Assembly: GCF_964036645.1 (NCBI RefSeq)
Contig: NZ_OZ038525.1
Location: forward strand, 2,564,501 to 2,628,500
Length of the DNA: 64,000 bases
Reading direction: 5' to 3'
From: Tenacibaculum sp. 190524A02b
GTDB lineage: Bacteria; Bacteroidota; Bacteroidia; Flavobacteriales; Flavobacteriaceae
Of this stretch, positions 21,243 through 44,097 are shown one piece after another; positions within the stretch are counted from its first letter, which is position 1; each line of letters begins with the position of its first letter. The notes beneath the pieces are model-generated. The model worked only from the letters and a program-made list of their open reading frames with translations. It was not told the DNA's origin and did no database searches. A program made the translations under genes and the position numbers.

Positions 21243-21322
21243 GTGTTTATTCCCATTATACTTACAAATCTAATAGATTTTTAACTAATTAAAAACTATA
21301 AAGTAGTTGAATATTCGTTTAA
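21243..21322. repeat. Array boundary block, copy 1
   Basis: About 80 bases roughly 80% identical by eye to 44019-44097, including ACTAATTAAAAAC and ATAAAGTAGTT. Both copies lie upstream of the last minus-strand gene of an accessory array and are followed by short repeats. Confidence 0.75.
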
Positions 21323-21380
21323 GGTTATACATTTTAATGCACATAACTAGTTGTAAAACACCAACACCTGAGAGAGCAAA

Positions 21381-21508
21381 CAAACAACACCCGAAGGTGG
21401 AAACAAACAACACCCGAAGGTGGAAACAAACAACACCCGAAGGTGGAAACAAACAACACCCGAAGGTGGAAACAAACAACACCCGAAGGTGGAAACAAAC
21501 AACACCCC
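21381..21508. repeat. 23-bp tandem repeat, five full copies, each with a UUCG hairpin
   Basis: Units start at 21381, 21404, 21427, 21450 and 21473, plus a 12-base partial sixth. The five copies look identical. Each contains CACCCGAAGGTG; on the minus strand this reads CACC-TTCG-GGTG, a 4-bp stem closed by C-G around the very stable UUCG tetraloop. The period is not a multiple of three, so it is not a coding repeat. There are no unique spacers. Confidence 0.9.
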
Positions 21509-21661
21509 ATAAAGTGGATGATATACATCCACTTTAAACTACGCTTAAATTACTAGCTACCTAAAATAGATTCAATCTTATTACTTGTTATATTACACTT
21601 TCTTCTTTAGTTTTCTTAAATTCCCTTTTCAATTACACAAACTAACTAAACCACCAACACC

Positions 21662-22600
21662 TTGTATTTAAAACACTTTTTCTTAATCGGCTTTCTAATA
21701 ATATCTCAATTGGTTAATTCGCAAAAAATGGTATCTATTACCATTGACGATATACCTAATGCTATCAACTTTAAAAAGAACAAGTATCAATCACTCCTTT
21801 TAAACAAACTGGATGCTTTGAAAATACCCATTGCTGTTTTTGTAAATGAAGTGCTTATCTATAGTACGGAAACAACTACCAAAAACTTTGATCTTTTGGA
21901 TCAATGGGCTCAAAGAGATTATATAACCTTAGGAAATCATACCTTTAATCATGCTAGGTATTCTGATTTAGGGCTTGAAGCTTATAAAGATGAAATTATA
22001 AAGGGAGAAGCCATTTCTAAACAGCTTGCTAAAAAATATAATAAATCACTTACACATTTTAGGTTTCCGTATAATGATTTAGGAAAAGACTCTATTCAGC
22101 AAACTCAAATAAAAAATTATTTAACTAAAAAAGGCTATCATATTACACCTTTTACTATTGAGAGTTCTGATTGGATGTATAATTTTGTTTATGAGTATTA
22201 CTTAACTAAAAACAACCTACAAAAAGCCAAAGAAATTGGAGAGGCTTATATAAATAAAACCTTAGCGTATTTTGATTTTTTTGAAGCCTTAGCACAAAAG
22301 GATTACCAGCGTCCTATAAAGCAAATTTATCTTTGTCATGATAATACTTTGAATGCCGATTATTTACCTCAACTAATCACTGCTTTAAAACAGAAAGGAT
22401 ATTCTTTTATTAGTTTAGACAATGCTTTAACTGATACAATTTACCAACAAAAAACAAATTATTATCAAAAATGGGGTGTTTCTTGGTTATACAGATGGGA
22501 AATTGCTGAAAAAGATCGTTATAAAAACATGAGGGAACAGCCTTCTACAACAACTATTCAAAAGTTATATAATAGCATTTTAAAAGAGATGAATAAATAG
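21662..22600 (+). CDS. Secreted polysaccharide deacetylase-family protein
   Basis: 312 residues with a TTG start, chosen because an in-frame stop lies 15 bases upstream and only this start keeps the signal peptide (FFLIGFLIISQLVNSQ). The NodB-type fold shows the first Asp pair in SITIDDIPN, the zinc His pair in GNHTFNHARYSD (HxxxH) and the Arg/Pro motif in FRFPYND; a later LCHDN supplies a candidate catalytic His. Family members remove N- or O-acetyl groups from chitin, peptidoglycan or surface glycans; the substrate is unknown. It lies just after the tandem-repeat region and ends before an intergenic repeat. Confidence 0.85.
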   Translation: MYLKHFFLIGFLIISQLVNSQKMVSITIDDIPNAINFKKNKYQSLLLNKLDALKIPIAVFVNEVLIYSTETTTKNFDLLDQWAQRDYITLGNHTFNHARYSDLGLEAYKDEIIKGEAISKQLAKKYNKSLTHFRFPYNDLGKDSIQQTQIKNYLTKKGYHITPFTIESSDWMYNFVYEYYLTKNNLQKAKEIGEAYINKTLAYFDFFEALAQKDYQRPIKQIYLCHDNTLNADYLPQLITALKQKGYSFISLDNALTDTIYQQKTNYYQKWGVSWLYRWEIAEKDRYKNMREQPSTTTIQKLYNSILKEMNK

Positions 22601-22676
22601 TTTCTCAAAGCAGTGAAAGCATGATTTTATTAAACTTATAACACAAAATTATAGTCTAACTCACCTTAATTTAATA

Positions 22677-22702
22677 AGATTTCGACTGCGCTCAATCTGA
22701 CA
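22677..22702. repeat. Flavobacterial-type intergenic repeat fragment
   Basis: Reads AGATTTCGACTGCGC followed by TCAATCTGACA. AGATT and AATCT form short arms around a GC-rich centre. From memory, sequences of the type TTTCGACTGCGCTCA occur widely between genes in Flavobacteriia; here a single copy lies in a 259-base gene-free stretch. Confidence 0.45.
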
Positions 22703-22806
22703 TATAGAACATATATCAAGTTTAGAACACGAAATAGTCAACCTTTACAGATCCTACATATATGGAAAACTTATTCGTAAACCATATAAAATAATATTAA
22801 TCCAAA

Positions 22807-22832
22807 ACGACCATTCTAAAAAGAATGGTCGT
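22807..22832. terminator. Terminator between the deacetylase and DUF4369 genes
   Basis: Perfect 11-bp stem ACGACCATTCT / AGAATGGTCGT around AAAA, with a short T-run on the minus strand. It lies 27 bases past the stop of the minus-strand DUF4369 gene. Confidence 0.8.
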
Positions 22833-22859
22833 TGTATTATTAAACAAAAGTAATCCCAA

Positions 22860-23573
22860 TTACTTTTGTTCTTTTGCTTTTATATTGGTTACAAACTTTT
22901 GTAATTGCTTTCCATATTTTGAGCCTTTTACTCTATCTGTTAAACTATTATTAATAGTATCTAACAATTGTATGTTGGCATCAAATAATTCAGTTAATGC
23001 AAGATATGGTGAAGCTTCACTATCTGCGTTGGCAATGGCAAAATTGGTTGTAAATAAAAATCTGCGTCTTACCATTTTTTTATAATCAAGTTCTAATTGC
23101 TTTATTGCCTCTTCATCTTTCGCTTGTCTTGCTTCTACATCTTTTTTAATAAAGTCTAAACGTTGATCTGTGAATCTTTTGTTTATTTCTTGAAATTTTT
23201 TGATTACTTCTTGGTTTTTAGAGCCTGTAATCTCTGGCTTAAACCCAAACTCCTCTACTTTGTCATTGATTGTAATTTCTCCTTTTTCTCCAAAAAACAA
23301 CAGTCGTTTGTCATTGGTATTTCCATTAAATGTTAAATAGTACATTTCTGGATTGTCCACATTATCTGTTAACACAAACATATCATTTCCTAATAACGCC
23401 ACAGAGTCTACAGTTACTAAAACTGTATCCTTCATTTTTTGAAGGTATAAAGTTCCTTTTTTAAGTCCTTTTATTTGACCTTTAACCACCATGTTTCCTT
23501 CTTTTTTAGAGGAACATGCAATGATTAATGAAGTGATGATAAGTGTAAGTATTGTTTTTTTCATTCTGATCAT
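22860..23573 (-). CDS. DUF4369-domain lipoprotein
   Basis: 237 residues. Lipoprotein signal with lipobox (IIACSS). Residues about 28-130 match DUF4369 (VVKGQIKGLKKGTLYLQKM, then VTVDSVAL and MYYLTFNG), a beta-sandwich found at the N-terminus of Bacteroidetes thiol-disulphide lipoproteins. Here the second half is helical and charged and has no thioredoxin CxxC, so redox activity is not supported. The start could be the second Met (MKKTI), three codons in. Probably anchored at the inner or outer membrane. Followed by a clear terminator. Confidence 0.8.
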   Translation of the reverse strand: MIRMKKTILTLIITSLIIACSSKKEGNMVVKGQIKGLKKGTLYLQKMKDTVLVTVDSVALLGNDMFVLTDNVDNPEMYYLTFNGNTNDKRLLFFGEKGEITINDKVEEFGFKPEITGSKNQEVIKKFQEINKRFTDQRLDFIKKDVEARQAKDEEAIKQLELDYKKMVRRRFLFTTNFAIANADSEASPYLALTELFDANIQLLDTINNSLTDRVKGSKYGKQLQKFVTNIKAKEQK

Positions 23574-23614
23574 TTTGTATTATCTCCTTAGGATTGCAAA
23601 TATGCGTAATTCTG

Positions 23615-24928
23615 TTAAATTGTGGCTGATAATTCCATTAAAATTGTACACAGAATAGCTCCAATGGTACCAATAGCATACCCAAAAACGGCTAGTAAAA
23701 CACCTACTGTTGCTAACGATGGGTGAAACGCTGAAGCTACTATAGGTGCCGAAGCTGCACCTCCTACATTTGCTTGACTTCCTACTGCTAAAAAGAAATA
23801 AGGTGCTTTAATTAATTTGGCTACTAAGATTAACAACCCTGCATGTATAGACATCCAAACCAACCCTATAGCTATTAAGCCTACATTATCAAAAATCATG
23901 GTTAAGTCCATTTTCATTCCAATAGTAGCTACTAATATGTAAATAAATACACTACCCAATTTACTAGCTCCTGCTCCTTCATAGTTTTTAGCTTTGGTAA
24001 AAGATAATGCTATAGCTACTATAGTTGAAATACTGATTAACCAAAAGAAACCTGAGCCTAAGAAAGAGAATATATTTCGCCATGTTGGTGAAGTTATGCC
24101 TTTGGTTATATCTGCAAAAAATGTACTTAAATATTTTGAAGCAAAATGTCCAAATCCAACGGTTCCAAATGCAATGGCTAACATAATCATGATGTCAGTT
24201 AATGTTGGATTTCTTTTTACACTTTGGGTAAAGTTTACTACTTTTTCTTTTAATTCTTCAATAGCTGAAGTATCTGCTTTTAACCAAGCATCTATTTTAT
24301 CTTTTTTACCAATTCCTATTAATAAAATGGCCATCCATATATTGGCTACAACGATATCAACAAATACCATTCCTCCGTATTTTGAAGGATTGTATTGATA
24401 AATTTCTAACATGGCTGTTTGATTAGCGCCTCCTCCAATCCAACTTCCTGCTAATGTAGACAGTCCTCTCCATACAGCATCAAAATCAGCGCCTCCAACG
24501 GTTTCAGGAGAAAAAATAGAGATTAATAAAATGGCTATAGGACCTCCAATAATAATACCCACGGTTCCTGTAAAAAACATAATTAATGCTTTAGAACCTA
24601 AATTAAAAATAGCTTTTAAATCAATACTTAACGTCATTAGTACCAACGCTGCTGGTAATAAGAAACGACTTGCTACATAGTATAATTGCGACTTGTTTTT
24701 TACTACTACTTCTCCTGCTTTATCTAAGCTTTCCCACTCTGGAGCTATAACGCCTAATGTGGTAAAAATAGCTGGGATAAAATAGGCCATAAATAAGCCT
24801 GGTACTATTTTATAAAACTTGTGCCAAAATCCTGATTTTTGATTTTCTGTATAAAAAACGAAGCCTAAAGAAATCATTAAAATACCAAAAACAATGGCGT
24901 CATTGGTAAATAAAGGTTGATTGTTCAT
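23615..24928 (-). CDS. DUF819-family integral membrane protein
   Basis: 437 residues with about eleven predicted membrane helices. Matches the DUF819 family: early FTNDAIVFGILMISLG, the GGSWIGGG-type signature seen as GSWIGGGANQTAMLE near residue 165, and C-terminal SQANVGGAASAPIVASAFHP. Family members look like transporters of the sodium-dependent/LrgB-like superfamily but have no firm substrate. The neighbouring DUF4369 and DUF2490 genes are on the same strand, with spacings of about 40 bases, so an operon is plausible. Confidence 0.85.
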   Translation of the reverse strand: MNNQPLFTNDAIVFGILMISLGFVFYTENQKSGFWHKFYKIVPGLFMAYFIPAIFTTLGVIAPEWESLDKAGEVVVKNKSQLYYVASRFLLPAALVLMTLSIDLKAIFNLGSKALIMFFTGTVGIIIGGPIAILLISIFSPETVGGADFDAVWRGLSTLAGSWIGGGANQTAMLEIYQYNPSKYGGMVFVDIVVANIWMAILLIGIGKKDKIDAWLKADTSAIEELKEKVVNFTQSVKRNPTLTDIMIMLAIAFGTVGFGHFASKYLSTFFADITKGITSPTWRNIFSFLGSGFFWLISISTIVAIALSFTKAKNYEGAGASKLGSVFIYILVATIGMKMDLTMIFDNVGLIAIGLVWMSIHAGLLILVAKLIKAPYFFLAVGSQANVGGAASAPIVASAFHPSLATVGVLLAVFGYAIGTIGAILCTILMELSATI

Positions 24929-24967
24929 AAATTGTAGTTAATTTCTGCTAAGGTATTGAAAATATGT

Positions 24968-25630
24968 TTACTTCTTTTTTTGATGATTAGTGTTAATAGC
25001 TACGCCTATTTGAACCCTATCAAAACCTTGGTGATTATCATTTATAATCTTCATATATCCTAACTGTAACTTAACACCTTTAGATACTTTATACTTTACA
25101 CCAATTCCCATCCAATTTTGGTTGAATGCTTCTCCTTCAAAATCAAAAAATATTTCGTCATATAAATAAGTAGACCATTTATCACATATAGGATAGTTAA
25201 AAGCTAGTTGGTATCGTATAAAATGTCCTGTAGTACTATTAAAAAAGCGTTGTTCAGCTCTTAATCTATGGTCTAGTCCTAACTCAGCAATCTTATGTTT
25301 AATGTTTAAATCTTCATACACTCTGTGTTCGTTAAAGTCTCCTTTATCTAACTCATATGTAGTGTCTGTACTTAAATAAGCATATCCTAAAGTAGCACTT
25401 AAGGTAGTATTGATTTTATAATTTGCTCCTAAACGTCCTATAAATTGTTGCATATCATCTCCTATTTCAAAAAAACGAAAATGTGCCATTGATTTTAGAC
25501 TAAACTTATTTGAAAGTGTATGAGAACCATTATACATATACCAAGCTCCAAATGTATTTTCTGGATTGGTTTGCGCTATTCCAGATAAAGCACTCATAGT
25601 TATAATGATAGCTAAATAAACTTTTTTCAT
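24968..25630 (-). CDS. DUF2490-family outer-membrane-like protein
   Basis: 220 residues. Signal peptide to about residue 19 (SGIAQ). The rest is amphipathic beta strands with the DUF2490 pattern: FGAWYMYNGSHTLSNKFSL, then FFEIGDDMQQFIGRLGANYK, LRAEQRFF and a last strand ending VQIGVAINTN. Probably a small outer-membrane beta-barrel; function unknown. Upstream of DUF819 on the same strand. Confidence 0.8.
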   Translation of the reverse strand: MKKVYLAIIITMSALSGIAQTNPENTFGAWYMYNGSHTLSNKFSLKSMAHFRFFEIGDDMQQFIGRLGANYKINTTLSATLGYAYLSTDTTYELDKGDFNEHRVYEDLNIKHKIAELGLDHRLRAEQRFFNSTTGHFIRYQLAFNYPICDKWSTYLYDEIFFDFEGEAFNQNWMGIGVKYKVSKGVKLQLGYMKIINDNHQGFDRVQIGVAINTNHQKKK

Positions 25631-25747
25631 TGTATTCTTTTTTCTGTGTTTATTAGCTGTAAATGTAGTAATTTAAGTATAAAAAGGTTGCCTTTTTATT
25701 TAAGACAACCTTGTTAACTTTAATAACCTTCTATTTATTATAGTGGC

Positions 25748-25954
25748 TTAAGAACATCCTCTACAATTTCTATGGTTATCACAATTTGCTATAGCATTAG
25801 CGGTTGAAGAATAGGTTACGGTATGAAGTGAGCCATCTGGATTTTCATATTTACAATCCCAAGATCGTCCGCCTCCTATTTCCATCTTTTCAGATTTTGA
25901 TAATTCTTCAACTCCTTGTACTTTTAATAAGTCTTTAATTAATGTTTGGTTCAT
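25748..25954 (-). CDS. Double-glycine-leader, Cys-rich small peptide (secreted peptide precursor)
   Basis: 68 residues. The first 29 read as a class II bacteriocin/ComC-type leader: ELSKSEKMEIGGG matches the (L/V)SxxE(L/M)xxIxGG pattern cut by C39-peptidase transporters. The core of about 39 residues has four Cys (DCKY; NCDNHRNCRGCS at the end), so disulphide or thioether bonding is possible. No C39 transporter, modifying enzyme or immunity gene is visible within several kb. It lies between the DUF2490 gene and the orphan RHS gene on the same strand. Flavobacteria encode many such peptides of unknown role. Confidence 0.7.
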   Translation of the reverse strand: MNQTLIKDLLKVQGVEELSKSEKMEIGGGRSWDCKYENPDGSLHTVTYSSTANAIANCDNHRNCRGCS

Positions 25955-26006
25955 AATTGTTTTGTTTTAAAATTGTTACTACAATAGTAGTTTCTATTTT
26001 AATAGG

Positions 26007-26034
26007 AAAAAACACCCTAAAAGGGTTGTTTTTT
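26007..26034. terminator. Terminator after the orphan RHS gene
   Basis: Near-palindrome AAAAAACACCCT / AGGGTTGTTTTTT with one bulge; runs of T on both strands. It lies 50 bases past the RHS stop and before the peptide gene. Confidence 0.65.
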
Positions 26035-26083
26035 CTAAACAACCATTATAAAAACATCGTAAAAACTATTGAAAGAATAGTTA

Positions 26084-29000
26084 CTACTTATAATCTTCTT
26101 CTTTATTTTTTTTAAAGTTATTATAATACTCCAACTTAGCATGCATAAATATTCTTGAATTATAAGGGTTTATATATTCTTGATTAACATTTCTTCTTTC
26201 CATATTTAACCATCTTCCTGTAGAAATATCATAGTTCCTAGTTCCAAAATCATACCAATACAAACCTAGTTCATCTTTCAGTTCTTTTCCATTAAACCTA
26301 AACTTCTGAGCTATACTATTACCATCTGAAGAAACAATGTTATTGTACCCCTTATGTTGCAAACCCAAGGGATAATAATTCAGTTCTTCTATAATTTCTG
26401 ATTTATTTCCTCTTGTTTGTATGGTACCATCATTATTATTATCTGTATACGATAGCCTTATGTTTCCGAAATAATCTTTGTATTGATATACATACTTATA
26501 AGAGGAGATTACTTCACTACCGTTTGTAATTACAGGAGTTACATAGCCTTCTGGGTGACGAAAGAATTGTAATCTATTTTTTTCATAAATATAATTACCG
26601 ATATAGTCTGTGATAGTTGTATTTTGATTATCTATGGTTATTTTTCTTTGCTTAACACCTGTGGCGTCATAAACATACTTTACTGTTTTATGATTAGTAT
26701 TTCCTACTTTAACTTCTGTTGGTAAATTTAAATGGTTATATACTATTCCAGCACTTGTATATGTGCCTATGTTTTTATTTAAGTTTGTTAGCATATTTCC
26801 ATTAGCATCATAAATATATTCAACATTAGAATTTACGTTGTCTATAAATCCAGTATTTATACTTCCTCCAGACAACTCTTCTACTTTAATTAACTTATTG
26901 CCTGAGTATATATATTTCAAATTATCCATTAGTCCAAAATGACTAACCCTAATATCTTTGTGTCCTCTTCTTTGTAGTTTTTTAATATTTCCGTTTTTAT
27001 CATAAACAATATTAGCAACATCATACTTATCGTTATTATACCCTTTTGCAGCTACCATTCTATTCAAAGCATCATACTTATATGTATACCCTCTAATATC
27101 ATTTGAAATGTTATTAGTTCTCCACAAAAATTCTTTAATATTACTAGTAGATTGCTCTTCTCTATCTCTATTTTGAGAAACATCATTATAACTCAACTTA
27201 AAAGAAAACAGATCATCTGCTAGGTTATCTATATTGTTTAGTTGTTTTAACTGTCCTTTGTTATTATACTGGTAGTTAATTATTTGCAAGCCTTTATTTA
27301 AATCTACAAAGACCAAATTTCTGATACTTGCATTCTTTTCATATAAAAAAACAATACCAACCATAGCTTTAGCCTCACTTAAAAATTCTGATGTATAAAA
27401 TACTTTATTGTTTTTTAAATAGTAAACTTTACCATTTCTACGTTCAATAGTAAAATAATCATTAGCTACATATGTTGTTTTTATCCCTATGTTTCTCCCT
27501 GATTCGTAAACATATGCTTTTCCTTCTTTATTTTGGATTGCATAAGCCATATCTTGGGATATTATATTGTTATCTACAGTAGACAATCCTACCATTACTT
27601 TTTTCTTTCCATTAGTTACTGAATAACTTACATAACCATCTTCTGAAATTTTATTTGACGTAGCTAATTCTGAATTATTATTAGTTTCTGAATTTTTAAC
27701 AATTACGTTTTCTTTTATTGAAACATCTTTGCTTATGTTGATATAACTACTTGTATTTGGTAAGCGTCCTCCTACTACTTTCTTAATAAGCTTTCCATAA
27801 CTATCATAGGTATTTTGTAAAATAAGCTCTTTAACTTGATTGTTAATTCGTTGTTCTTGACGAATCAAACGATTGACAGTATTATAGGTGTAATAGTTTT
27901 CTGTAATTACAGGTGCTTTATTTTCTCTTTTATGTACCCATAATTCTTTTAATGTCCTACCTTCTGAATCTAGCTCTTTTCCTGTTTCATTTTTAGCTTT
28001 TAAATAATTATTTTCAGTTATTCTATAGATTGGTCTTTTTTGAGCATCATAATAAATAGATGTTGTAATCCATTTTGAGGTTCCTAAAACACGGGCTTTT
28101 ATACCTGTTTTTAAACTTTCTGTACCATTAGTAAATAATTGTCCTCCGTGAGAATACCCTATATATACGGTATTCTGTTTATTATTTACCTCATAAAATG
28201 TACTGAATCCTCGTAAAGAACTCTGAATATCAATCAAACCTTTATGAAATATTTTATCATTTTTTTTATACAAAATGTATTCTCCTGAACGTTCTACTTT
28301 AAAAATATCTCCTACTTGATAATTACCTTCTAATGCTATGGATAATACATCTTTCTCATAAACATTTATTTTCCCTTTCTCATTCAAACTTATTTTATAA
28401 TCTATAGGTAAAGACGTACGATTATTCTTTTCAAGAATTGTAAAACCTACTTCTCTATTTTTATTTAGTTCTGGAACTGTAAATTGGATATATCCATCAT
28501 GTTCTATAACTTCTGTAGATATATATTTTTGAGTGTTTTCTTCCCTATTAAAACCATACGAAATCTTCAATTTATTATCCTTTTTCCAATTATAATCATC
28601 ATAATAATTAATAGTAAATATCTTTAACTGCTTTGTTGGAAAAGTTCTGGAAGTATAATAGAGTTCTGTACTCATATCTACCAATTTATTTCCTGTTCTT
28701 ATTCTTTCCTCGTAAAGTAATTCAGAATTTTTATTAGTGTGTGTAGTTACCCTATTTTGAAGTTTTTCTCTCTCTTCATTATCTATATACAAACCTGTAT
28801 AAGCTATTCTACCATCAAAATCGTATTTGGTAAACAACCATTCTTTTGGAGTTTTTGCTCTTTGATTAGCATCTTGAGTTAAAACTGGACGATCTAATTT
28901 ATCATAAACAATATTTTCTTTTCCTTTTCCTGGTATTTTCTTTTCTATCAATCTATTTCTAGTGTCATATCTGTACTGATAACATAGATTATCCAATATT

Positions 29001-29518: not shown

Positions 29519-29645
29519 TCAGTTCTTGGTTTTTAAATTATAACTATTAAGGTGTATTGCGGGTTAATAAACTACCAAGATGTAAAACATCTAGATATTA
29601 TACAAATTGACTATCTCATAGCAATTAAACGTACGGTAAATTTGT

Positions 29646-30587
29646 TTAAAAAACAGGTTCTTTCCATCTTACTCTCATATAATTATCTATTTTCTTGAGA
29701 TCTTTAGGTAAGTTTTGTTTTATAATCATCAATAAATTTTCTAATAACTTTTCTTTAGTAAAGTTTTTATTAACCACAATACTTACTTCTCTTGTAGGAA
29801 TTGGATCTTTAAATTGTTTTATAAACTGTCTTTCTTCTGTATTTTGAATGGAAAGCTGTGGTACTAAACTATATCCTAAACCTGCTTGTACTAAATTTTT
29901 AATAGTTTGAATAGAACCACTTTCAAATATAAAATCATGGTTTATATCGGTATTCTTCTCCTTACAAATGTTTAATACTTGATTCCTAAAACAGTGCCCC
30001 TCTTCTAACAACAACAGATTTTCAGGTGTTAAATCTTTTTCATCTACCTTCTCTGCTTCTTCAAAAAGTTCTGCATTTTTGCAATAAAGAAAGAAAGGTT
30101 CTTGGTAAAGATTTATTTCACGTAATCTTGAATCTTCTAAAGGAGTAGACAAAATGCTCAAATCTAACGTTCCATTATTAAGCGCTTCAATAATTTGGTT
30201 TGTTTGCATTTCCTTAATTGTTAATTTTAAATCAGGATGTTCTCTTACAAAATCTTCCAAAAAAAGCGGTAATAAATAGGGTGCGATGGTAGGTATAATT
30301 CCTAAAGTAAATTCACCTGTAAGATCTGTTTTATCTCCGTAAGCAAACTTATTAAACTCACCTACCTCACGTAAAATTAATTTAGCTTTTGCTATTAATA
30401 CTTCACCTACAGGCGTAGGTGTAAGTGGAGATTTATTTCTATTAAAAATAGTTGTACCAATTTCTTCTTCTAGCTTTTTTACCTGTAAAGTTAAAGTTGG
30501 TTGCGTAACAAAACATGCTTCTGCAGCTTTTACATAATGTCTTTTATTATTTAATGCAACAATATATTTAAGTTGTTGTATAGTCAT
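29646..30587 (-). CDS. oxyR: LysR-family peroxide sensor OxyR
   Basis: 313 residues. N-terminal winged HTH (QQLKYIVALNNKRHYVKAA, TQPTLTLQVKKLEEEIG) and C-terminal regulatory domain. The redox pair of OxyR is present: GHCFRNQVLNIC matches the E. coli GHC...C spacing (Cys199 and Cys208). It is divergent from a catalase gene across 664 bases, the usual oxyR-kat arrangement. Peroxide would oxidise the Cys pair and activate katA. No binding site could be read with confidence. Confidence 0.93.
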   Translation of the reverse strand: MTIQQLKYIVALNNKRHYVKAAEACFVTQPTLTLQVKKLEEEIGTTIFNRNKSPLTPTPVGEVLIAKAKLILREVGEFNKFAYGDKTDLTGEFTLGIIPTIAPYLLPLFLEDFVREHPDLKLTIKEMQTNQIIEALNNGTLDLSILSTPLEDSRLREINLYQEPFFLYCKNAELFEEAEKVDEKDLTPENLLLLEEGHCFRNQVLNICKEKNTDINHDFIFESGSIQTIKNLVQAGLGYSLVPQLSIQNTEERQFIKQFKDPIPTREVSIVVNKNFTKEKLLENLLMIIKQNLPKDLKKIDNYMRVRWKEPVF

Positions 30588-35666: not shown

Positions 35667-35671
35667 CTTTT

Positions 35672-37591: not shown

Positions 37592-37654
37592 AGTGCGGCA
37601 AAGATACTTTTAATTACAATATATTTTGCCTGAAATGCAATTTATTTATTTCAT

Positions 37655-37912
37655 TTATGAGGCGCAATTGTTTTTAAACCAACCACTTCTCTGTTTTAAA
37701 TATCTTTTTAATAAAAACAATATTCCACTTAGCACATTCCAAATTATGAAATAAATCCAAATATCTTTTTTGAATTCCGTTAAACAAGGAGGGCAAGGGT
37801 AATCAGGAATACAGGGTTCGCATGATATGAAAAAAGAGTCAATTAAAAATCGCCCAATTAACAGTAAATTTCCAATAATCCAACTATAAAAAATGTAATT
37901 CTTTTTTTTCAT
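37655..37912 (-). CDS. Small two-helix membrane protein with Cys-rich loop
   Basis: 85 residues. Two predicted membrane helices (about 8-28 and 51-66) enclose a loop CEPCIPDYPCPPC, four Cys in 13 residues, that could bind metal or form disulphides on the outer side. Family not recognised. It starts one base after the stop of the next upstream gene (37914), so it is coupled to it. This is the low-coordinate end of the second accessory zone. Confidence 0.6.
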   Translation of the reverse strand: MKKKNYIFYSWIIGNLLLIGRFLIDSFFISCEPCIPDYPCPPCLTEFKKDIWIYFIIWNVLSGILFLLKRYLKQRSGWFKNNCAS

Positions 37913-37913
37913 T

Positions 37914-38369
37914 CTAATTTTCTATTTCACCCCTATATTTTTCCCTATCTGTTGAGTGAATTCCGAACATTGTAATTCCACTATCAAAGATTTTAATATC
38001 AAAATCACGCTTTATTTTATATCTGTCATCCAAATCCTTTGATAAATATATAAACCCTAGAAAAAAAACTCCAAATCCAACCCAAAATATTTTACAAATC
38101 AGTTTAGGTATGTTTACTTCCCATAATCGGTTTATAATCAACGTTACTATTAACCAAAAGGCAAAATAAGTCAGAAAATTAATTGTCATTTCAGTCAAAA
38201 AGTATTGAGTTGACAATGATGTATGAAACCCTTCGCACTTGTAGATTAAAGGAAAGCCATAGAAAAAAACATCTTTTGCATCTATCGCAATTCCAAACCA
38301 CCATTTGGTTATAATTCCAAATGAAATTAACGTCAAAGGTAATGTTTGTCTAAAAATTATTTTTTTCAT
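37914..38369 (-). CDS. Small membrane protein, three predicted helices
   Basis: 151 residues. Hydrophobic segments at about 9-29, 65-83 and 93-112; a soluble C-terminal tail with a basic/acidic mix (SKDLDDRYKIKRDFDIK). Not recognised. Translationally coupled to the Cys-rich small membrane protein that follows. No homologue could be assigned by eye. Confidence 0.6.
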   Translation of the reverse strand: MKKIIFRQTLPLTLISFGIITKWWFGIAIDAKDVFFYGFPLIYKCEGFHTSLSTQYFLTEMTINFLTYFAFWLIVTLIINRLWEVNIPKLICKIFWVGFGVFFLGFIYLSKDLDDRYKIKRDFDIKIFDSGITMFGIHSTDREKYRGEIEN

Positions 38370-38393
38370 TTATCAAATTCGGGTAAGGATGCT

Positions 38394-38412
38394 CACACGA
38401 TTGCATCGTGTG
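38394..38412. repeat. Palindromic spacer element, copy 1
   Basis: CACACGATTGCATCGTGTG is a perfect 8-3-8 inverted repeat in the 52-base gap between two minus-strand genes. A degenerate sister lies at 39037-39057. Confidence 0.7.
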
Positions 38413-38421
38413 GTTAGATAT

Positions 38422-39018
38422 TTACCAAACAGTTTCTAAATCCGTTTCTGTTGCCTTTTCTACGCGATTTTCTTTTTTAATATCAATATACTCAGCTATT
38501 GTAAACTCCACCACTTTTTTCTCCTTATTAAGAGATAAAATATCCCAAACTTTTTCAGCATTTATATTATTGAATTCACATGGCAATTGACTCAAACGTT
38601 TTTCGAATAATTTTTGATTATAAGGTTTAGATATTCTAAAAACATCACTTCCAACAATCTCTGGAATAGTGTAAACAAAATCTAAGTTTAATAACTTTTC
38701 AATCAAACTCATTTTTCGTAGAATTCGATTTATTTTTATGTTATAAGACTTTCGAATATCAAACTCTGGAAATGTTTTTCGAGCTATTTTTTCATGTTTA
38801 ATTTTCTCTAGAAAATCAGCTTTTGGGTTATTATCTCCAGAACCATAAATAAAAAATCTTTCATCTGGCTTATTAATAAATATCAATCCTTGACCAACGT
38901 AAATTTCTGTCGGATGAAAATAACTAAAACAATAATAATCAGGAGTATTTTCAATTTCTCTTAGTTTCATTTCTGGAATACTCAACCCCTTAATATATTT
39001 TATAGCTAATTCTTTCAC
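38422..39018 (-). CDS. Cytosolic protein of unknown function
   Basis: 198 residues, no signal peptide or membrane segment. Not recognised. The segment GQGLIFINKPDERFFIYGSG recalls immunity-protein sheets of the Imm35/YrhB type, but this is only a resemblance. Single gene flanked by palindromic spacers. No neighbour suggests a toxin partner. Confidence 0.55.
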   Translation of the reverse strand: MKELAIKYIKGLSIPEMKLREIENTPDYYCFSYFHPTEIYVGQGLIFINKPDERFFIYGSGDNNPKADFLEKIKHEKIARKTFPEFDIRKSYNIKINRILRKMSLIEKLLNLDFVYTIPEIVGSDVFRISKPYNQKLFEKRLSQLPCEFNNINAEKVWDILSLNKEKKVVEFTIAEYIDIKKENRVEKATETDLETVW

Positions 39019-39036
39019 GATTATATTTTATTTACT

Positions 39037-39057
39037 CCACACGATTGCATTCTGTGG
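39037..39057. repeat. Palindromic spacer element, copy 2 (degenerate)
   Basis: CCACACGATTGCAT followed by TCTGTGG; arms CCACA / TGTGG with an internal mismatch compared with the copy at 38394-38412. Immediately beyond it, 39063-39097 repeats the 3' end of the RAYT gene at 40300-40332. Confidence 0.6.
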
Positions 39058-39132
39058 TTACAATTCATAGTTTAAATTAATTTTCAAAAAAAATAATAAT
39101 TCTAAAATGTCATGTTATTTCTTGCTCGCAAC

Positions 39133-39146
39133 ACGAAAAAGTTCGT
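39133..39146. repeat. Short hairpin in cassette spacer
   Basis: ACGAA AAAG TTCGT, a 5-4-5 inverted repeat; same core (ACGAA/TTCGT) as the larger element at 42349-42377. Confidence 0.45.
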
Positions 39147-39163
39147 ATAAGTACTCTATGGAA

Positions 39164-39454
39164 CTATTTATTTATCTCTTTATGATCTACCATAAAAACT
39201 AATATAATAGTACTAATTAGAGAGGTAATTAAAAATGGAATTAATTTTATTACATCAATTAATCTAACAGAAAGTCCTGCAATAAAAACTATTAAAAAAT
39301 AGAATAAAAACAAAACAATTCTCTTTTTAATTCTAGAGTTAAATCTTTTAATAATTCTTTCTCTAAAATATATTGTTATAAATATAGGGTTGAGAATTAC
39401 CCAACAAATCATTATCAATAATAGTTCCGTATATGAACCTGTTCCTCCAATCAT
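39164..39454 (-). CDS. Small membrane protein, about three predicted helices
   Basis: 96 residues. Hydrophobic segments at about 7-27, 45-63 and 69-90, with a basic loop (RERIIKRFNSRIKKR). Not recognised. Single gene between palindromic spacers. Confidence 0.55.
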   Translation of the reverse strand: MIGGTGSYTELLLIMICWVILNPIFITIYFRERIIKRFNSRIKKRIVLFLFYFLIVFIAGLSVRLIDVIKLIPFLITSLISTIILVFMVDHKEINK

Positions 39455-39490
39455 TTTTTTATGTTAACAACCTACACTACCATATAATTG

Positions 39491-39520
39491 CACCATACAA
39501 AAGGATTCGTGCAAGAGCGA
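39491..39520. repeat. Palindromic spacer element, degenerate
   Basis: Contains AAAGGATTCGTGCAAGAGCGA, partial match of the perfect copy at 42349-42377 (AAAGGATTCGTGCGGGAGCG). Lies between the membrane protein and the ParDE pair. Confidence 0.55.
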
Positions 39521-39551
39521 GTTTTTCTTATAGATTGTTAGCTACTGCCTA

Positions 39552-39848
39552 TTATAATCTATTCTCAATATCCATTCTTTGATGTAGAATTCGAATTATT
39601 TCTACTATTTGAGTTTTCTTGTCTATTTTATAGAATAAATAATGAAGTTTAACTTTAGTTCTTAAATATCCTTTTCTAACATAACTAAAGTCTTTTCCTT
39701 CTTCCGGTTTTGTCGAGATATACTCAATCTCCTCAAAAATTTGATTTAGATATCTGTCAGCTTTTTCAATAGACCAAGTTTCAAAAGTATATGCCCATAT
39801 TTTTTTAAGGTCTTTTTCCGCTTCAACACTAATTTTATATTTCGCCAC
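39552..39848 (-). CDS. parE: ParE/RelE-family toxin
   Basis: 98 residues, basic. Matches the RelE/ParE fold: YKISVEAEKDLKKIWAYT, the GKDFSYVRKGYLRTKVKLHY strand pair and IVEIIRILHQRMD at the C-terminus, the ParE-type ending. ParE toxins inhibit DNA gyrase; RelE toxins cut mRNA; the ParD-type partner favours ParE. Overlaps the antitoxin gene by 14 bases. Its location inside an array of unrelated accessory genes fits a stabilising role (inference). Confidence 0.88.
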   Translation of the reverse strand: MAKYKISVEAEKDLKKIWAYTFETWSIEKADRYLNQIFEEIEYISTKPEEGKDFSYVRKGYLRTKVKLHYLFYKIDKKTQIVEIIRILHQRMDIENRL

Positions 39849-40089
39849 TCGAATATTTTTTATGCATTGAACTTAAAAAATCACTCTTACTAAAGTTCTC
39901 TACAAATCCTGAGTTTTCTCCTTTTTTTAATTCTCTAATTAGTTCTTTTTTCTTATTCTCCTCTTGTTCAAATAATCTTAGCGCAGTTCTAACGACTTCG
40001 CTTGCAGACGAAAATCGTCCTGAGGTTATTTGTTCACTTATAAATTCATTAAAGTAATCACCCAACAATATTGATGTATTTTTTGCCAT
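39835..40089 (-). CDS. parD: ParD-family antitoxin
   Basis: 84 residues. N-terminal ribbon-helix-helix of the ParD/CC2985 type: a strand KNTSILLGDYF, then FISEQITSGRFSSASEVVRTALRLFEQEE. The C-terminal ~30 residues are the flexible toxin-binding tail. Antitoxin first, toxin second with overlapping ends, as usual. Probably binds its own promoter just upstream of 40089. Confidence 0.9.
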   Translation of the reverse strand: MAKNTSILLGDYFNEFISEQITSGRFSSASEVVRTALRLFEQEENKKKELIRELKKGENSGFVENFSKSDFLSSMHKKYSSGEI

Positions 40090-40151
40090 AATTATTGTTT
40101 TTTACAAATATACCAATTTATGGTATTAAACACAAATCTTTGGGTTATAGC

Positions 40152-40199
40152 TAACGCTGTAGGCATGAGCTGTAAACCATTGTCTTTTGCCTATTGTTA
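40152..40199. repeat. attC-like palindromic spacer
   Basis: TAACGCTGTAGGCA at the left and TGCCTATTGTTA at the right form an imperfect inverted repeat (TAGGCA/TGCCTA plus TAAC/GTTA) around a 22-base centre. It lies between the parD start and the RAYT 3' end in a 219-base gap. The arrangement TAAC...GTTA resembles the outer boxes of an integron attC, but the consensus cores do not match well. Confidence 0.45.
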
Positions 40200-40308
40200 T
40201 CGGTTGTCTTTGATGAGTATTCACTCAGTAAAGAACTGATAAAGTTGGGTATCTAAAGCTTCTTCGTTGTAACTCTAGAAAGGCATCGTGGTGGTGACTA
40301 TTCTTAGT

Positions 40309-40872
40309 TTAAATTAATTTTCTAAAAATAATGATATTATCTAACAAACCTGTTTCTCCAGCATAGTCAATAGCACTACTATATCTATAATCTTCTGGTT
40401 TAAAAACCCAACCTGCTTTTACTGGGTTATTATGGATATAGTTAATTTTTTCATTGATTACCTTAGTACTCCACAATTCTATTGGTTTATTATCATGCCT
40501 CCAAAATTGATATTTCTTTACATTTGAAGATTTATTGGCTACTTTTTGAAATTCCGCTAATAGTAATTCTTTCCTGCTTTCTCTAAGGTTTTCCTGAATC
40601 GCTTTTACGATTGCTTTACTTGTAAATCATTTAAAATCTCCTAATAACAACTGTGGTGGTTGTCCTTGGGTACTTCTAAATATTAAATGAATATGATTAG
40701 TCATAATACACCAAGAAAAAATTTCCATTCCTTTATTTTCTTGACAAAATGATAGGCTTTTCAATAAAATATCTTTGTACTCATTTCTGGTAAAAACATC
40801 TAACCACTTTACTACTGCAAAGCTTACAAAATAGATGCCGTCTGGATTATGGAATTTATAGTTTCTACTCAT
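40309..40872 (-). pseudogene. RAYT (REP-associated tyrosine transposase), interrupted by an in-frame stop
   Basis: IS200/Y1 superfamily transposase. The first part (from MSRNYKFHNPDGIYFVSF) has the His pair in MTNHIHLIF, the HUH motif. At codon about 81 an in-frame TGA follows LLLGDFK; the reading frame continues unchanged after it with FTSKAIVKAIQENLRESRKE, WRHDNKPIELWS and YIHNNPVKAGWV, family signatures ending in a TAA at 40309-40311. A single base change (CGA or AGA to TGA) explains it. The catalytic Tyr of the family would lie downstream of the stop. A REP-like palindrome sits 19 bases before the start codon (40891-40924), as RAYT theory expects. Confidence 0.82.
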
Positions 40873-40890
40873 AGCACAGCTAAAATACAA

Positions 40891-40924
40891 AAAACTACCT
40901 TACATTTTACTGTACAGTAGTTTT
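40891..40924. repeat. REP-like nested palindrome, copy 2, upstream of RAYT
   Basis: Opposite-strand copy of 18782-18815: on the minus strand outer arms AAAACTACT / GGTAGTTTT and inner TACA / TGTA around GTAAAA. About 30 of 34 bases agree with copy 1. Confidence 0.75.
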
Positions 40925-40989
40925 CTATTTTTATTTTGTGACGTCCTGAATACTCGTTACAATAATTAATATATTAAAGGTAGTAATTT

Positions 40990-41930
40990 TTAAATTGCTA
41001 CCTTTAGTTTTTTGTAGCTTTTTCTTTTGACTTTTTTTTGTTGGTGCATTTGATTAGGAGTTAACATTGAATTTGATAAATGAGGTCTTATTTGATTGTA
41101 AATATTGATTGCATTTTTAATTAACTTCTTTTTAATTTGTATAGAAACGTCGTATTTATCAATTGCAAATTCTTGTTTAAGAATCCCATTGATTCTTTCA
41201 GCTATAGCATTTTCATAAGGATCATATTTTTCAGTCATGCTAGGTTTGATATTATTGATACTTAACATTTTTTGATATTCATTAGAGCAATATTGTAACC
41301 CTCTATCTGAATGATGAATAATAGGTTCTTTATTATAATTTCTATTAGAGATTGCCATATCTAGGGCTCTTAAAGAACCTGCTACATTTAAACTATTAGA
41401 GACATCATACCCCATTATTTTTTTAGAGTAAGCATCAGTAATTAGCGCTAAATAACATGGGTTTTCTCTCTTTCCAATGTAAGTAATATCACTCACCCAT
41501 ACTTGTTCAGGTCTTACAAATTCTATATTTTTAAGTTGATTTACATGTTTTCTAAATCTATGATGAGAATTTGTAGTTATATGATATTTTTTCTTGGTAG
41601 AATTAATAAATTATTAGCTTTTAATATTTTAAACAACTTATCACGACCAACACCAATTGCTTTTAATTCAGATTTTAAAAGATAAAATAATTTCCTTGTA
41701 CCTATTCTCGGCATTGATATACGGATAGTATTTACTAAATCAATAACCTTTTTACTAAGCTTTTGTTTCTCTTTATATGAATGAATAGCTCTATAATATA
41801 CCTGCCTATTCACCCCGAGTAAATCACAGGTAGCTGTTATGCTTTCTTTGGCTTCTTGACTATATTTTTTGATAACTCGGGTACGTGCTTTTTCTGATTG
41901 GAATATTAAATTCTTCTTCAGCAATATCAA
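40990..41930 (-). pseudogene. IS3 transposase orfB (DDE integrase), frameshifted
   Basis: The N-terminal part (to LLILPRKNII) and the C-terminal part (from MSDITYIG) are in different frames. Reading through the A6 run (T6 on the plus strand, 41587-41592) with one extra A gives RKKYHITTNSHHRFRKH..., joining the halves, so one A is missing or is a base-call error. Catalytic triad visible: WVSDITY, HHSDRGLQY and ENAIAERINGILKQE. The N-terminal HTH_21-type region has SITATCDLLGVNRQVYYRA. orfB starts 71 bases before the orfA stop and lies +1, not the usual -1, relative to orfA. Confidence 0.82.
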
Positions 41931-42267
41931 TCATCATATCAAAAATGATGACTTTTTTATCAGCAAGCTCTGCTAAATATTCAGCACGTGCTTTTTGCTT
42001 TTCTAAAAGCTTGACTTGTTGCTCTAATTCTAAAATACGCTGTTCAGGTGTTTTTGACATGGTTTGATTTATACTAAAATCGTAATCAAATTTACCATAT
42101 TTTTTTAACCAAGTACGAATCGTAGATCTTGCTTGAATACCATATTTATCAATCGCTTGAGTTCTGGTTAATAATCCTTGCTCAATCTCTTGAACAACTT
42201 GTAGTTTAAAGGACAAACTATAATCCTTTTGGGTTCGCTTTACATAATCTGATTTCCTAGAATCCAT
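41860..42267 (-). CDS. IS3 transposase orfA (DNA-binding)
   Basis: 135 residues. N-terminal HTH (YSLSFKLQVVQEIEQGLLTR, IQARSTIRTWLKKYG) and a leucine-rich coiled coil (RILELEQQVKLLEKQKARAE), the OrfA pattern. Overlaps orfB by 71 bases. Starts about 40 bases inside the right terminal repeat. Confidence 0.85.
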   Translation of the reverse strand: MDSRKSDYVKRTQKDYSLSFKLQVVQEIEQGLLTRTQAIDKYGIQARSTIRTWLKKYGKFDYDFSINQTMSKTPEQRILELEQQVKLLEKQKARAEYLAELADKKVIIFDMMIDIAEEEFNIPIRKSTYPSYQKI

Positions 42268-42348
42268 AAAATAACTTTTAGTTGTAACGCTATTTTAGGA
42301 CGGGACATTTATTAATAACTTTAGCTGTTAATACTTACTCATACTCGT

Positions 42349-42377
42349 CACACGAAAGGATTCGTGCGGGAGCGGGG
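42349..42377. repeat. Palindromic spacer element, perfect copy
   Basis: CACGAA AGGA TTCGTG (6-4-6) with the flanking tail CGGGAGCGGGG. Degenerate relatives at 39491-39520 and 39133-39146. Lies between the IS and the following minus-strand gene. Confidence 0.65.
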
Positions 42378-42389
42378 TTATTTTAGAAT

Positions 42390-42962
42390 CTATAATCCTT
42401 CTTCAAAATTCATTCTTTCAACCTTTTCTCTTTGCTCTATCAATGTTTCCACTCCAAAATCTCTTCGCTCTTTATTTGTAATTTTCGTTGTATCAATGTC
42501 GGCTAGTTTCCATGGTTCATCTCCATTTTTATGATATTGAGTCCCGTAAATCTGAGGTTTTCCAATACTTAATAAATACCTATCTGTAGCTGCAGCTAAA
42601 AGCCACTTATCAGCATTAGGATTTAACTCAATGCTTTTTTTCATAAGATTCATAGCCATTTTATAACTAGTTGAATCACCTCCGTGTTGAAATATCATAG
42701 CTGCATGTCTATAATCTTTTGATGTATGTAACTTCTTAAGTTTTATTAATTCCATTACTCTTAAACGTCTCAAGCTATCATTTTTTGAAACTTCATCCCA
42801 GTCTGTTTCAAAATAATCTTTTTGGCGGTCCTTTTGATCATTATAATGAATTTGACTTAGTTCAATGTTATCATTAAAGATTCCGTTCTTTATCGCATTT
42901 GAATGTTTTATATTGTTCTTACAAGAAGTAACTATAAATACGACTAAAATTATCCTTTTCAT
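42390..42962 (-). CDS. Lipoprotein with a DUF6624-like region
   Basis: 190 residues. Signal peptide with lipobox (FIVTSCKNN). The central part HAAMIFQHGGDSTSYKMAMN and WLLAAATDRYLLSIGKPQIYGTQY match my recollection of DUF6624 (FQHG and the RYL...PQ..GTQ signature); function unknown. The C-terminus is charged and coiled. Single gene between palindromic spacers. Family assignment is from memory and moderately certain. Confidence 0.6.
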   Translation of the reverse strand: MKRIILVVFIVTSCKNNIKHSNAIKNGIFNDNIELSQIHYNDQKDRQKDYFETDWDEVSKNDSLRRLRVMELIKLKKLHTSKDYRHAAMIFQHGGDSTSYKMAMNLMKKSIELNPNADKWLLAAATDRYLLSIGKPQIYGTQYHKNGDEPWKLADIDTTKITNKERRDFGVETLIEQREKVERMNFEEGL

Positions 42963-43064
42963 AAAAAAAATGTTTTAATGAAGCACAACGACCCAGCTAA
43001 GGAATCGTTGCGTTAGTTTTACTTTTACGTTATAAATATACCTAAAGATTTGAGTTGTCCGAGT

Positions 43065-43083
43065 ATTTTCCCAACGGGAAAAT
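43065..43083. repeat. Short hairpin in cassette spacer
   Basis: ATTTTCCC AAC GGGAAAAT, a perfect 8-3-8 inverted repeat in the gap 42963-43099. A second one (CAACGA/TCGTTG) lies near 42985-43010. Confidence 0.6.
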
Positions 43084-43099
43084 GCGTAAGCAGTGTTTT

Positions 43100-43978
43100 T
43101 TAGGTTTTGTTATATGCTTTTTTTACTATAGTTTTTTCTTTATTGGGCTTATTATACTCTATTGGATCTAATGAAAAAAAGCTTCTGTAGTTTTTGTCAT
43201 TAGGTTGAAATAAAGAGTTTTTTCCTTTGAATTTAACTTCTAGAGCAAGTTTTCCATTGTTTAAAAAACGTTGAAGTATAACTTCGTTTTTTTCTCTGTC
43301 TGAAATTACAATTTCATGGTGATAATGATTTGGAGCGCCTAAATAAGTTGAAAAAGGAATAGAATCTCTGGAATAGTTTAGGCTCCTTTTAAGTCCAACC
43401 TTACGCATAGGAGCTATTGAATCTATTTCATTTAGATATAATGTGATTAATTGATGTGGATCCCAAAAACTTGATGTAAACACTCCATCTTCATAAAGAA
43501 TATAATCAATATATTTTTCTTTCTTTTTTAACTCAGAATATATTTGTTGTATATATGTTTCATAAATATAACTAGAGAAGTCAGGATTACTAAGAAAGCC
43601 TTTAACAGTAAATCTATTTTCTATTCCAATTAAACCTAGATATTTATTGTTTTTAGCTTCAAAACATTCAAATTGAGTTGATGGATTACAAGTTTTATAT
43701 AAAGGGATAAAGCTACCTATTCCGATAGTTAACTCTTTTTTTTCTCTTAATTCGATAATTCTATTTCCAGTTCCTTGAATTATTATATTTCCATTTTTTA
43801 GTAAGAATTTATATGATACTTTATCTTCTCCTGCTAATATTCCATTTTGTATTTCACAGAAAGAACCTGAATTTTGTTGAGTCATTTTATAATATTTAAA
43901 ATGAATTGGAAAAAAACCGAAGTTGTGAAGGAGAATTAATATCGTAATTCCTATTATTAAAATTTTGAACTTTTTCAT
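43100..43978 (-). CDS. Membrane-anchored protein of unknown function
   Basis: 292 residues. One N-terminal hydrophobic segment at about 5-25 that may be an uncleaved anchor, then a mostly beta soluble part with scattered Cys (SFCEIQNG, KTCNPSTQFECF). Not recognised. Last gene of the second accessory zone; the shared boundary block starts 41 bases before its ATG. Confidence 0.55.
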   Translation of the reverse strand: MKKFKILIIGITILILLHNFGFFPIHFKYYKMTQQNSGSFCEIQNGILAGEDKVSYKFLLKNGNIIIQGTGNRIIELREKKELTIGIGSFIPLYKTCNPSTQFECFEAKNNKYLGLIGIENRFTVKGFLSNPDFSSYIYETYIQQIYSELKKKEKYIDYILYEDGVFTSSFWDPHQLITLYLNEIDSIAPMRKVGLKRSLNYSRDSIPFSTYLGAPNHYHHEIVISDREKNEVILQRFLNNGKLALEVKFKGKNSLFQPNDKNYRSFFSLDPIEYNKPNKEKTIVKKAYNKT

Positions 43979-44018
43979 TTTTAGACTAATTGCATATAAC
44001 GCAGAGGTAAATACAATG

Positions 44019-44097
44019 GTGTTATCCCCATTACATTTACAATGCTACTAGATTTTTTACTAATTAAAAACCATAAAGTAGTTCAACATCAATTTAA
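44019..44097. repeat. Array boundary block, copy 2
   Basis: Roughly 80% identical by eye to 21243-21322. Same position (upstream of the last minus-strand array gene) and orientation. Confidence 0.75.

What the first reader, a model, noticed from the sequence alone, without database searches (positions are those of the whole stretch)
21243..44097. Two accessory arrays end in the same ~80-bp boundary block
Seen: 21243-21322 and 44019-44097 share about 80 bases (roughly 80% identity by eye), in the same orientation. Each lies just upstream of the last minus-strand gene of a run of unrelated small genes (18.8-21.2 kb and 37.6-44.0 kb) and is followed by a ~22-23-base short repeat. Known: chromosomal integrons and some phase-variable or insertion hotspots show repeated end sequences. 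Inference: both arrays were built by the same mechanism and this block is an insertion or anchor site.
Basis: partly seen in the sequence, partly recalled or inferred. Interest (0 to 1): 0.75.

Follow-up and report, generated by a model that had tools for sequence, protein, structure and literature searches.

The report
Integron-like arrays without canonical integron integrase
The repeated block marks the head of two gene-cassette arrays, apparently remains of an integron-like gene-capture system found in many Bacteroidota, whose recombinase lacks the protein insert thought essential for integrons.

Summary
In detail: two ~80-bp blocks, 83% identical. The genome holds 13 copies at E<=5e-6 and three more found with a consensus. 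Each window block is the promoter-proximal head of its array: a -7-box-like motif, a hairpin-type stretch in most copies, and a GTT point where homology stops. One partial copy lies 24 bp behind a broken tyrosine recombinase. Most relatives with the recombinase carry it intact, followed by TAA(A)CnnGTT and cassette arrays of up to 126 sites. Cassette starts (GTT-N7-AT) are complementary to the same cassette's end (AC-N7-AAC); the sites fold best on the bottom strand; in two super-arrays 194 of 194 sites point one way. A model of these sites, built only from other species, finds the first site behind both window blocks (3e-11, 1e-6). The recombinases lack the ~42-residue IntI insert (88 of 88; 14 of 14 IntI have it) and fall outside the IntI clade. 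Surveys that select on that insert would miss them. In this genome the system looks dead, since the only recombinase copy found is broken. Recombination itself is inferred, not shown. Best label: an IntI-independent variant of the integron, spread through Bacteroidota.

The parts
21221..21323 (-). Block 1: platform copy (promoter + attI-like head) of array 1; degenerate at the recombination point (ATT instead of GTT)
21265..21272 (-). TAGATTTG, matches TANNTTTG (-7 box of Bacteroidetes promoters; the motif is recalled)
   Evidence: sequence; TAG[AC]TTTG in 11 of the 13 examined copies that hold this half (read)
21349..21532 (.). 23-bp tandem repeats upstream of block 1
20580..21209 (-). Cassette gene 1 of array 1 (209 aa, UPF0158-like below cut-off)
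20439..20577 (+). attC-like site after cassette gene 1 of array 1 (model strand = bottom strand of array)
   Evidence: R1 hit, 59.5 bits, E=3.3e-11
20019..20411 (-). Cassette gene 2 of array 1 (130 aa, no family); its cassette starts GTTAGTAAACAT (GTT-N7-AT)
18852..19898 (-). Array 1 gene 3, calcineurin-like phosphoesterase
43997..44097 (-). Block 2: platform copy heading array 2; cassette start GTTATATGCAAT at 44000 downwards
44040..44047 (-). TAGCATTG, degenerate -7-like box in block 2
   Evidence: sequence
43100..43978 (-). Cassette gene 1 of array 2 (292 aa, no family)
42978..43120 (+). attC-like site after cassette gene 1 of array 2; its R'' AGCATATAAC matches the rc of the cassette start at 9 of 10 bases
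   Evidence: R1 hit 39.2 bits, E=1.1e-6
42390..42962 (-). Cassette gene 2 of array 2 (190 aa, DUF6624-like, below cut-off); cassette start GTTGTGCTTCAT
40990..42267 (-). IS3-type insertion sequence (rve core + HTH pieces; the IS3 label is recalled) interrupting array 2
40627..40890 (-). Y1/IS200-like transposase fragment
39552..40089 (-). ParE/ParD-type toxin-antitoxin pair in array 2
37655..39454 (-). Further small genes of array 2 (85, 151, 198 and 96 aa; no Pfam family)

Best explanation
The block is the platform (promoter plus attI-like integration site) of an integron-like cassette system. In intact copies a tyrosine recombinase of mostly 370-415 residues is followed, about 15-230 bp past its stop, by an attI-like core TAA(A)C-nn-GTT, in a third of cases with a promoter -7 box 14-16 nt before it, and then by an array of cassettes (observed). 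Cassettes start GTT-N7-AT and end in a ~120-bp attC-like site whose first half, AC-N7-AAC, is complementary to that same cassette's start (observed). Inferred: cassettes are excised as circles and re-inserted at the GTT through a folded bottom strand, as in integrons, and are transcribed from the platform promoter. In the window's genome the recombinase was found only as a broken remnant beside one partial platform copy. The dispersed copies, among them the two window blocks, head short, decayed and probably immobile arrays. How the platform was copied around the chromosome is not known. The recombinase is not IntI: it lacks the catalytic-domain insert and has an extra N-terminal domain.
For: (1) Self-complementarity. 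20 first cassettes of relatives: mean best match 10.6/12 to their own end against 9.13 (sd 0.16) for permuted pairs, 0 of 10,000 permutations as high (two pairs of rows are the same place, so 18 are independent). Named genomes: exact 10-nt pairs behind the recombinase in 27 of 59 loci, against 1 of 59 upstream and 36 of 1180 shuffles. Two super-arrays: 105 and 42 strict cassettes, against 0 and 0 on the opposite strand. (2) Bottom-strand folding: more stable in 31 of 32 sites (DNA energies) and 32 of 32 (RNA); arm mismatches 71 A.C against 3 G.T on the top strand. Covariation: 12 of 16 long-helix pairs change on both sides. (3) Polarity: 126 of 126 and 68 of 68 model hits on one strand. (4) Model R1, built without the window's genome, hits both window arrays, and 8 of 9 genome hits lie near blocks (150 of 6904 candidates scored). 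(5) attI-like core behind the recombinase in 26 of 32 downstream regions; without three regions fetched twice, 23 of 29. TANNTTTG 14-16 nt before the core in 16 of 47, against 1.9% elsewhere. (6) attC counts follow recombinase presence. (7) Partial block copy next to the broken recombinase. (8) At two other block copies of the same genome the first cassette fits the start/end rule at 12 of 12 positions (11 complementary bases plus the A.C position).
Against: No recombination event was observed. In the window block 1 has lost the GTT, and a tolerant self-complement scan of the two window arrays is no better than its controls except at the modelled position. Of 14 copies examined, 8 have a model hit within about 4 kb, and one of 9 genome hits (807831) has no block. 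The block itself occurs in only 5 of 59 genomes; the link to other species rests on the recombinase and on attC, not on the block. 31 of 47 attI-like cores lack TANNTTTG; 6 of 32 regions lack the core. The specificity control was not clean: 7 of 20 genomes with canonical IntI carry 1-4 model hits, and 13 of 27 relatives without the recombinase have at least one.
Confidence: 0.87

Rival explanations
1. The arrays are relics of a canonical integron whose IntI was lost; the neighbouring recombinase is a coincidence.
For: Canonical IntI exists in the phylum (84 of 296 genomes over the cut-off). Cassette logic is the same. An attC of a Polaribacter phage was recombined by IntI1 in E. coli (PMC9892861, passages), so flavobacterial sites can suit IntI.
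Against: No TIGR02249 match over the cut-off in the own genome. The 86 genomes with a match are all 'same phylum' or, in one case, 'same class'; none is of the own genus or family. The recombinase lies beside attI in relatives and its presence follows attC number. Only 8 of 82 ends fit the integron core RYYYAAC.
Confidence: 0.06
2. The block is a dispersed promoter-bearing mini-element (MITE- or REP-like, perhaps moved by an IS200/Y1-type transposase) that merely sits upstream of accessory genes.
For: 13 or more dispersed copies; a Y1 transposase fragment in array 2; some copies seem to sit inside arrays, right after an attC half (sequence).
Against: In the copies examined the block is read towards the genes behind it and homology ends at the GTT point; attC sites follow 8 of 14; a partial copy lies beside the recombinase. 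Terminal repeats and target duplications were not tested.
Confidence: 0.05
3. The system is integron-like but works on double-stranded DNA like Xer; the hairpins are by-products.
For: The recombinase is XerA/XerC-like and lacks the I2 insert thought necessary for single-strand work (PMC7790495 passages).
Against: Strong strand asymmetry: 71 A.C against 3 G.T, and conserved G.T pairs at two positions in 23 of 26 sites each, which a folded bottom strand explains most simply.
Confidence: 0.15

Closest known systems
Sedentary chromosomal integrons (IntI, attI, attC, Pc)
   Same: Recombinase beside attI, promoter-like box at the head, head-to-tail cassettes, GTT point, start complementary to the end of the same cassette, attC folding on the bottom strand, super-arrays of about 100 kb
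   Different: Recombinase lacks the IntI insert and lies outside the IntI clade; extra N-terminal domain; 7 free cassette-specific bases instead of RYYYAAC/GTTRRRY; integrase 3' end faces attI; in the window's genome the platform is repeated 13 times or more
CALIN / orphan cassette clusters
   Same: The window arrays are cassette clusters without a working recombinase
   Different: Each keeps its own platform block, and the likely ancestral recombinase type is identifiable
Reverse integrons (as in Treponema; recalled)
   Same: The orientation of the integrase relative to the array is not the class-1 one
   Different: Those use IntI with the insert (recalled)
XerA/XerC/XerD recombinases
   Same: Best curated family hit is NF040815 XerA in 3 of 3; same catalytic spacing
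   Different: Extra N-terminal domain, position next to cassette arrays, side of the tree separate from the four Xer-like proteins of the own genome

Membership tests
Integron | Tyrosine recombinase gene adjacent to an attachment site and array | tested here: met
   attI-like core behind 26 of 32 recombinase regions, 23 of 29 without repeats
Integron | IntI with unique additional (I2/patch III) domain | tested here: not met
   Spacing KDR to HxLRH 58-60 in 88 of 88 recombinases, 101 in 14 of 14 IntI, 60-67 in 4 Xer-like; TIGR02249 below cut-off in 3 of 3
Integron | Cassette start complementary to the 5' end of its own attC | tested here: met
Integron | attC folds as hairpin on the bottom strand | tested here: met
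   (structure named by me from these sequences)
Integron | Core consensus RYYYAAC / GTTRRRY | tested here: not met
   AAC/GTT present by construction of the search, but RYYYAAC in only 8 of 82
Integron | Cassette promoter Pc at the platform | tested here: inconclusive
   TANNTTTG at fixed distance in 16 of 47, 1.9% control; 11 of 13 block copies holding that half; no transcript data
Integron | Experimental cassette excision and capture | not testable with these tools
   no experiment
IntI clade | Recombinase falls inside the IntI clade | tested here: not met
   IntI 14 rows one clade, support 100; 88 recombinases on a separate side, support 80 (quick method, four Xer-like rows on long branches)
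HARP/XPB-DRD DNA-binding domain (N-terminus of recombinase) | Family or fold match | tested here: inconclusive
REP/RAYT elements | Block is moved by a Y1 transposase and flanks it | not tested
   only a Y1 fragment seen in array 2

The most novel reading that the evidence does not exclude
Bacteroidota have a second, IntI-independent lineage of integrons: cassettes with private 7-base end tags and bottom-strand hairpin sites, captured by an XerA-like recombinase that lacks the I2 insert and may read folded DNA through an N-terminal HARP/XPB-like domain instead. Cassettes move between orders (Flavobacteriales and Cytophagales) with their end tag intact.
Probability: 0.6. Interest if true: 0.93.

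Novelty: new variant of a known kind. Interest (0 to 1): 0.85.

Why it matters
An early integron survey kept only proteins with the extra IntI domain (PMC2426708, passages), IntegronFinder 2.0 reports one complete integron in Bacteroidetes proper, in Salinibacter (PMC9024848, passages), and a Tenacibaculum genome run through it was said to hold no integrons (PMC10013915, passages). If this reading holds, gene-capture platforms spread through the Bacteroidota, some about 100 kb long, have been passed over. It also bears on an open question: the I2 helix is held to be what turned a double-strand recombinase into a single-strand one, both being thought exclusive to IntI, and no ancestor without it was at hand (PMC7790495, passages). 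These recombinases are natural I2-less enzymes next to sites with the bottom-strand signature, so the necessity of I2 becomes directly testable.

Tried and rejected

Rows dropped before counts: one search used 20 of the 26 regions with a core (at least 1200 bp left; L088 removed as duplicate of L114; L086/L109 and L080/L110 are the same places and were left in); 59 of 80 loci (21 with under 600 bp downstream left out); 82 cassettes include a few probable chance pairs (for example third links of L113 and L110); 32 of 39 full sites (length filter to 36, near-duplicates to 32). Alignment A3: 26 of the 28 references (L145 and L172 left out as divergent); 14 block copies were examined; L012 and L013 were not. 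One search scored 150 of 6904 candidates and does not list the block-2 site that one search found; one named row (L126) gave a spurious motif spacing; three truncated rows were left out of the tree. Counts are capped at 54 per genome; one search does not correct for relatedness. Site counts of the super-arrays were checked by repeating the search per genome.
Full report
WHAT IS THERE. Two blocks, window 21221-21323 and 43997-44097, share 83% identity over 76 nt in the same orientation. The 5.04-Mb genome has 13 places at E<=4.6e-6 and three more with a consensus query. Outside it the block is rare: 5 of 59 genomes, its own included, have a match at E<=0.001. Read in array direction (minus strand in the window), most copies align through TTTATRGTTTTTAATTAGTTAAAAATCTAGTAGATTTGTA..TAATGGGAATAAACAC-ATTGTGTTTATCCCTACGTTA and diverge at the GTT; a few have another second half. 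Eleven of the 13 examined copies that hold that half keep TAG[AC]TTTG, which fits TANNTTTG, the -7 box known from Bacteroidetes (recalled). The genes follow on the same strand, so the block is the head of each array.

LINK TO A RECOMBINASE. One partial copy (genome 126440-126479) begins 24 bp behind a broken tyrosine recombinase gene, with small genes after it. In G000 this was the only match at E<=1e-35, with an open frame of 183 aa, against 371-416 aa for most relatives. Related genes occur in 32 of 59 genomes including G000; of these 29 have one, two have two and one has three. Behind 26 of 32 downstream regions, 23 of 29 without repeats, lies TAA(A)C-nn-GTT, as a rule followed by a small gene (sequences).

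CASSETTE LOGIC. In integrons the first bases of a cassette are complementary to the 5' end of its own attC (recalled). That holds here: 10.6 of 12 bases against 9.13 in permuted pairs, 0 of 10,000 permutations. In the named genomes an exact 10-nt pair follows the recombinase in 27 of 59 loci, against 1 of 59 upstream and 36 of 1180 shuffles. From 82 cassettes in 43 arrays: start GTT-N7-A (79 of 82) T (73), end A (72) C (77)-N7-AAC-A (79); RYYYAAC in only 8 of 82; 32 of 39 full sites measure 116-121 bp from AAC to GTT. In two single-contig genomes, 108 and 125 kb next to the recombinase hold 126 and 68 sites, all on one strand in each, and 105 and 42 strict cassettes against none on the other strand.

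FOLDING. Of 32 non-redundant sites the bottom strand is more stable in 31 (DNA energies) and 32 (RNA). In the arms, A.C mismatches of the top strand, which are G.T pairs on the bottom strand, number 71 against 3 of the opposite kind. On 26 sites, 95.5% of cells pair, 12 of 16 long-helix pairs show changes on both sides, covariation is 0.400 against 0.111 shuffled, and G.T is kept at each of two positions in 23 of 26. The structure was drawn from these sequences, so the slide control favours it. The two window sites alone show little strand difference (-12.5 against -12.8 and -16.1 against -15.1 kcal/mol), as decayed sites might.

BACK TO THE WINDOW. Model R1, built from other species, hits window 20439-20577 (E=3.3e-11) and 42978-43120 (1.1e-6), the sites right after the first gene behind each block, on the expected strand. 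In the genome search 8 of 9 hits lie within 3.2 kb downstream of a block copy; the ninth, 807831, has none. That search scored only 150 of 6904 candidates and misses the block-2 site. Of 14 copies examined 8 have a hit within about 4 kb, two of these with E of 1e-4 and 1e-3 in a search of nine loci. The cassette behind block 2 matches its own end at 9 of 10 bases; two other copies (4336750, 2026161) fit the rule at 12 of 12 positions; block 1 has lost its GTT and does not match. A tolerant scan of the window arrays alone is no better than its controls. Cargo: a phosphoesterase, a ParDE-type pair, sub-threshold family matches and orphans; an IS3-type element interrupts array 2.

PROMOTER. In 16 of 47 platforms with a core, TANNTTTG lies within 45 nt before it, in each case 14-16 nt away, against 1.9% of equal windows elsewhere. 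The other 31 lack the strict motif.

NOT INTI. Best curated family is XerA-like NF040815 in 3 of 3; TIGR02249 stays below its cut-off, and the two stretches matched in the solved integron integrase 2a3v leave out its residues 179-246. Spacing from KDR to HxLRH is 58-60 in 88 of 88 recombinases, 101 in 14 of 14 canonical IntI of the phylum, 60-67 in four Xer-like proteins. The tree puts IntI in one clade (100) and the recombinases together on another side (80, quick method). Canonical IntI passes its cut-off in 84 of 296 genomes of the phylum, none of the own genus or family, so both systems exist in the phylum. An extra N-terminal domain is predicted with high confidence; HARP and archaeal XPB domains are among its nearest matches, all weak.

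CO-OCCURRENCE AND EXCHANGE. Control: 13 of 20 genomes with canonical IntI have no R1 hit, seven have 1-4. A Flavobacteriaceae strain and an Algoriphagus (Cyclobacteriaceae) share a homologous cassette, 88% over 179 bp, with the same start GTTGTGCTTCAT.

LITERATURE. IntegronFinder 2.0 reports a single complete integron in Bacteroidetes proper, Salinibacter ruber M1 (PMC9024848, passages). An early survey kept only proteins with the additional domain (PMC2426708, passages). The domain is called necessary for cassette capture and unknown in other proteins (PMC7790495, passages). A survey of tyrosine recombinases notes that the insert is not fully conserved in its integron-like subgroup (PMC8138268, passages). 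Nearest prior hints: a Polaribacter phage with two predicted attC sites, one of which IntI1 recombined (PMC9892861, passages), and a Tenacibaculum genome in which IntegronFinder 2.0 found no integron (PMC10013915, passages). The other searches of the held library (listings seen) showed no description of this system. No preprints are held, so prior description elsewhere is possible.

SHOWN AND INFERRED. Shown by sequence: block family, recombinase remnant, attI-like and attC-like sites, self-complementarity, bottom-strand bias in relatives, polarity, missing insert. Inferred: excision and insertion at GTT, single-strand mechanism, promoter activity, role of the N-terminal domain, and that the window arrays are now immobile.

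Noticed in passing
21349-21532; also upstream of copies at 4272937, 659649, 184434, 4860430, 2026161: Minisatellites with units of about 21-42 bp sit just upstream of several platform copies (units judged by eye); no explanation found.
   Followed up: partly
G012 super-array (L225-L230): Of 105 strict cassettes only 34 have an ORF of 50 aa or more, and only 27 distinct 7-base tags occur.
   Followed up: no
genome copies 857832 and 4860430: A 40-bp ORF-less mini-cassette that is itself a hairpin sits directly at the GTT of two platform copies.
   Followed up: no
genome 4335408-4340048: Four block copies in a row, apparently each followed by a gene, some with a different second-half hairpin (AATAATAGTAATTGCTATTAT type).
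   Followed up: partly
L162 10390-10567 and L144 11653-11830: Homologous cassette with the same start tag in Flavobacteriaceae and Cyclobacteriaceae; the tag GTGCTTC also starts window cassette 2 of array 2, with a different gene.
   Followed up: partly
40627-42267: IS3-type element and a Y1 transposase fragment inside array 2.
   Followed up: no
L181, L195: Related recombinases in Halonatronum (Bacillota) and a Spirochaetota MAG; the latter has a self-complementary pair behind it.
   Followed up: no
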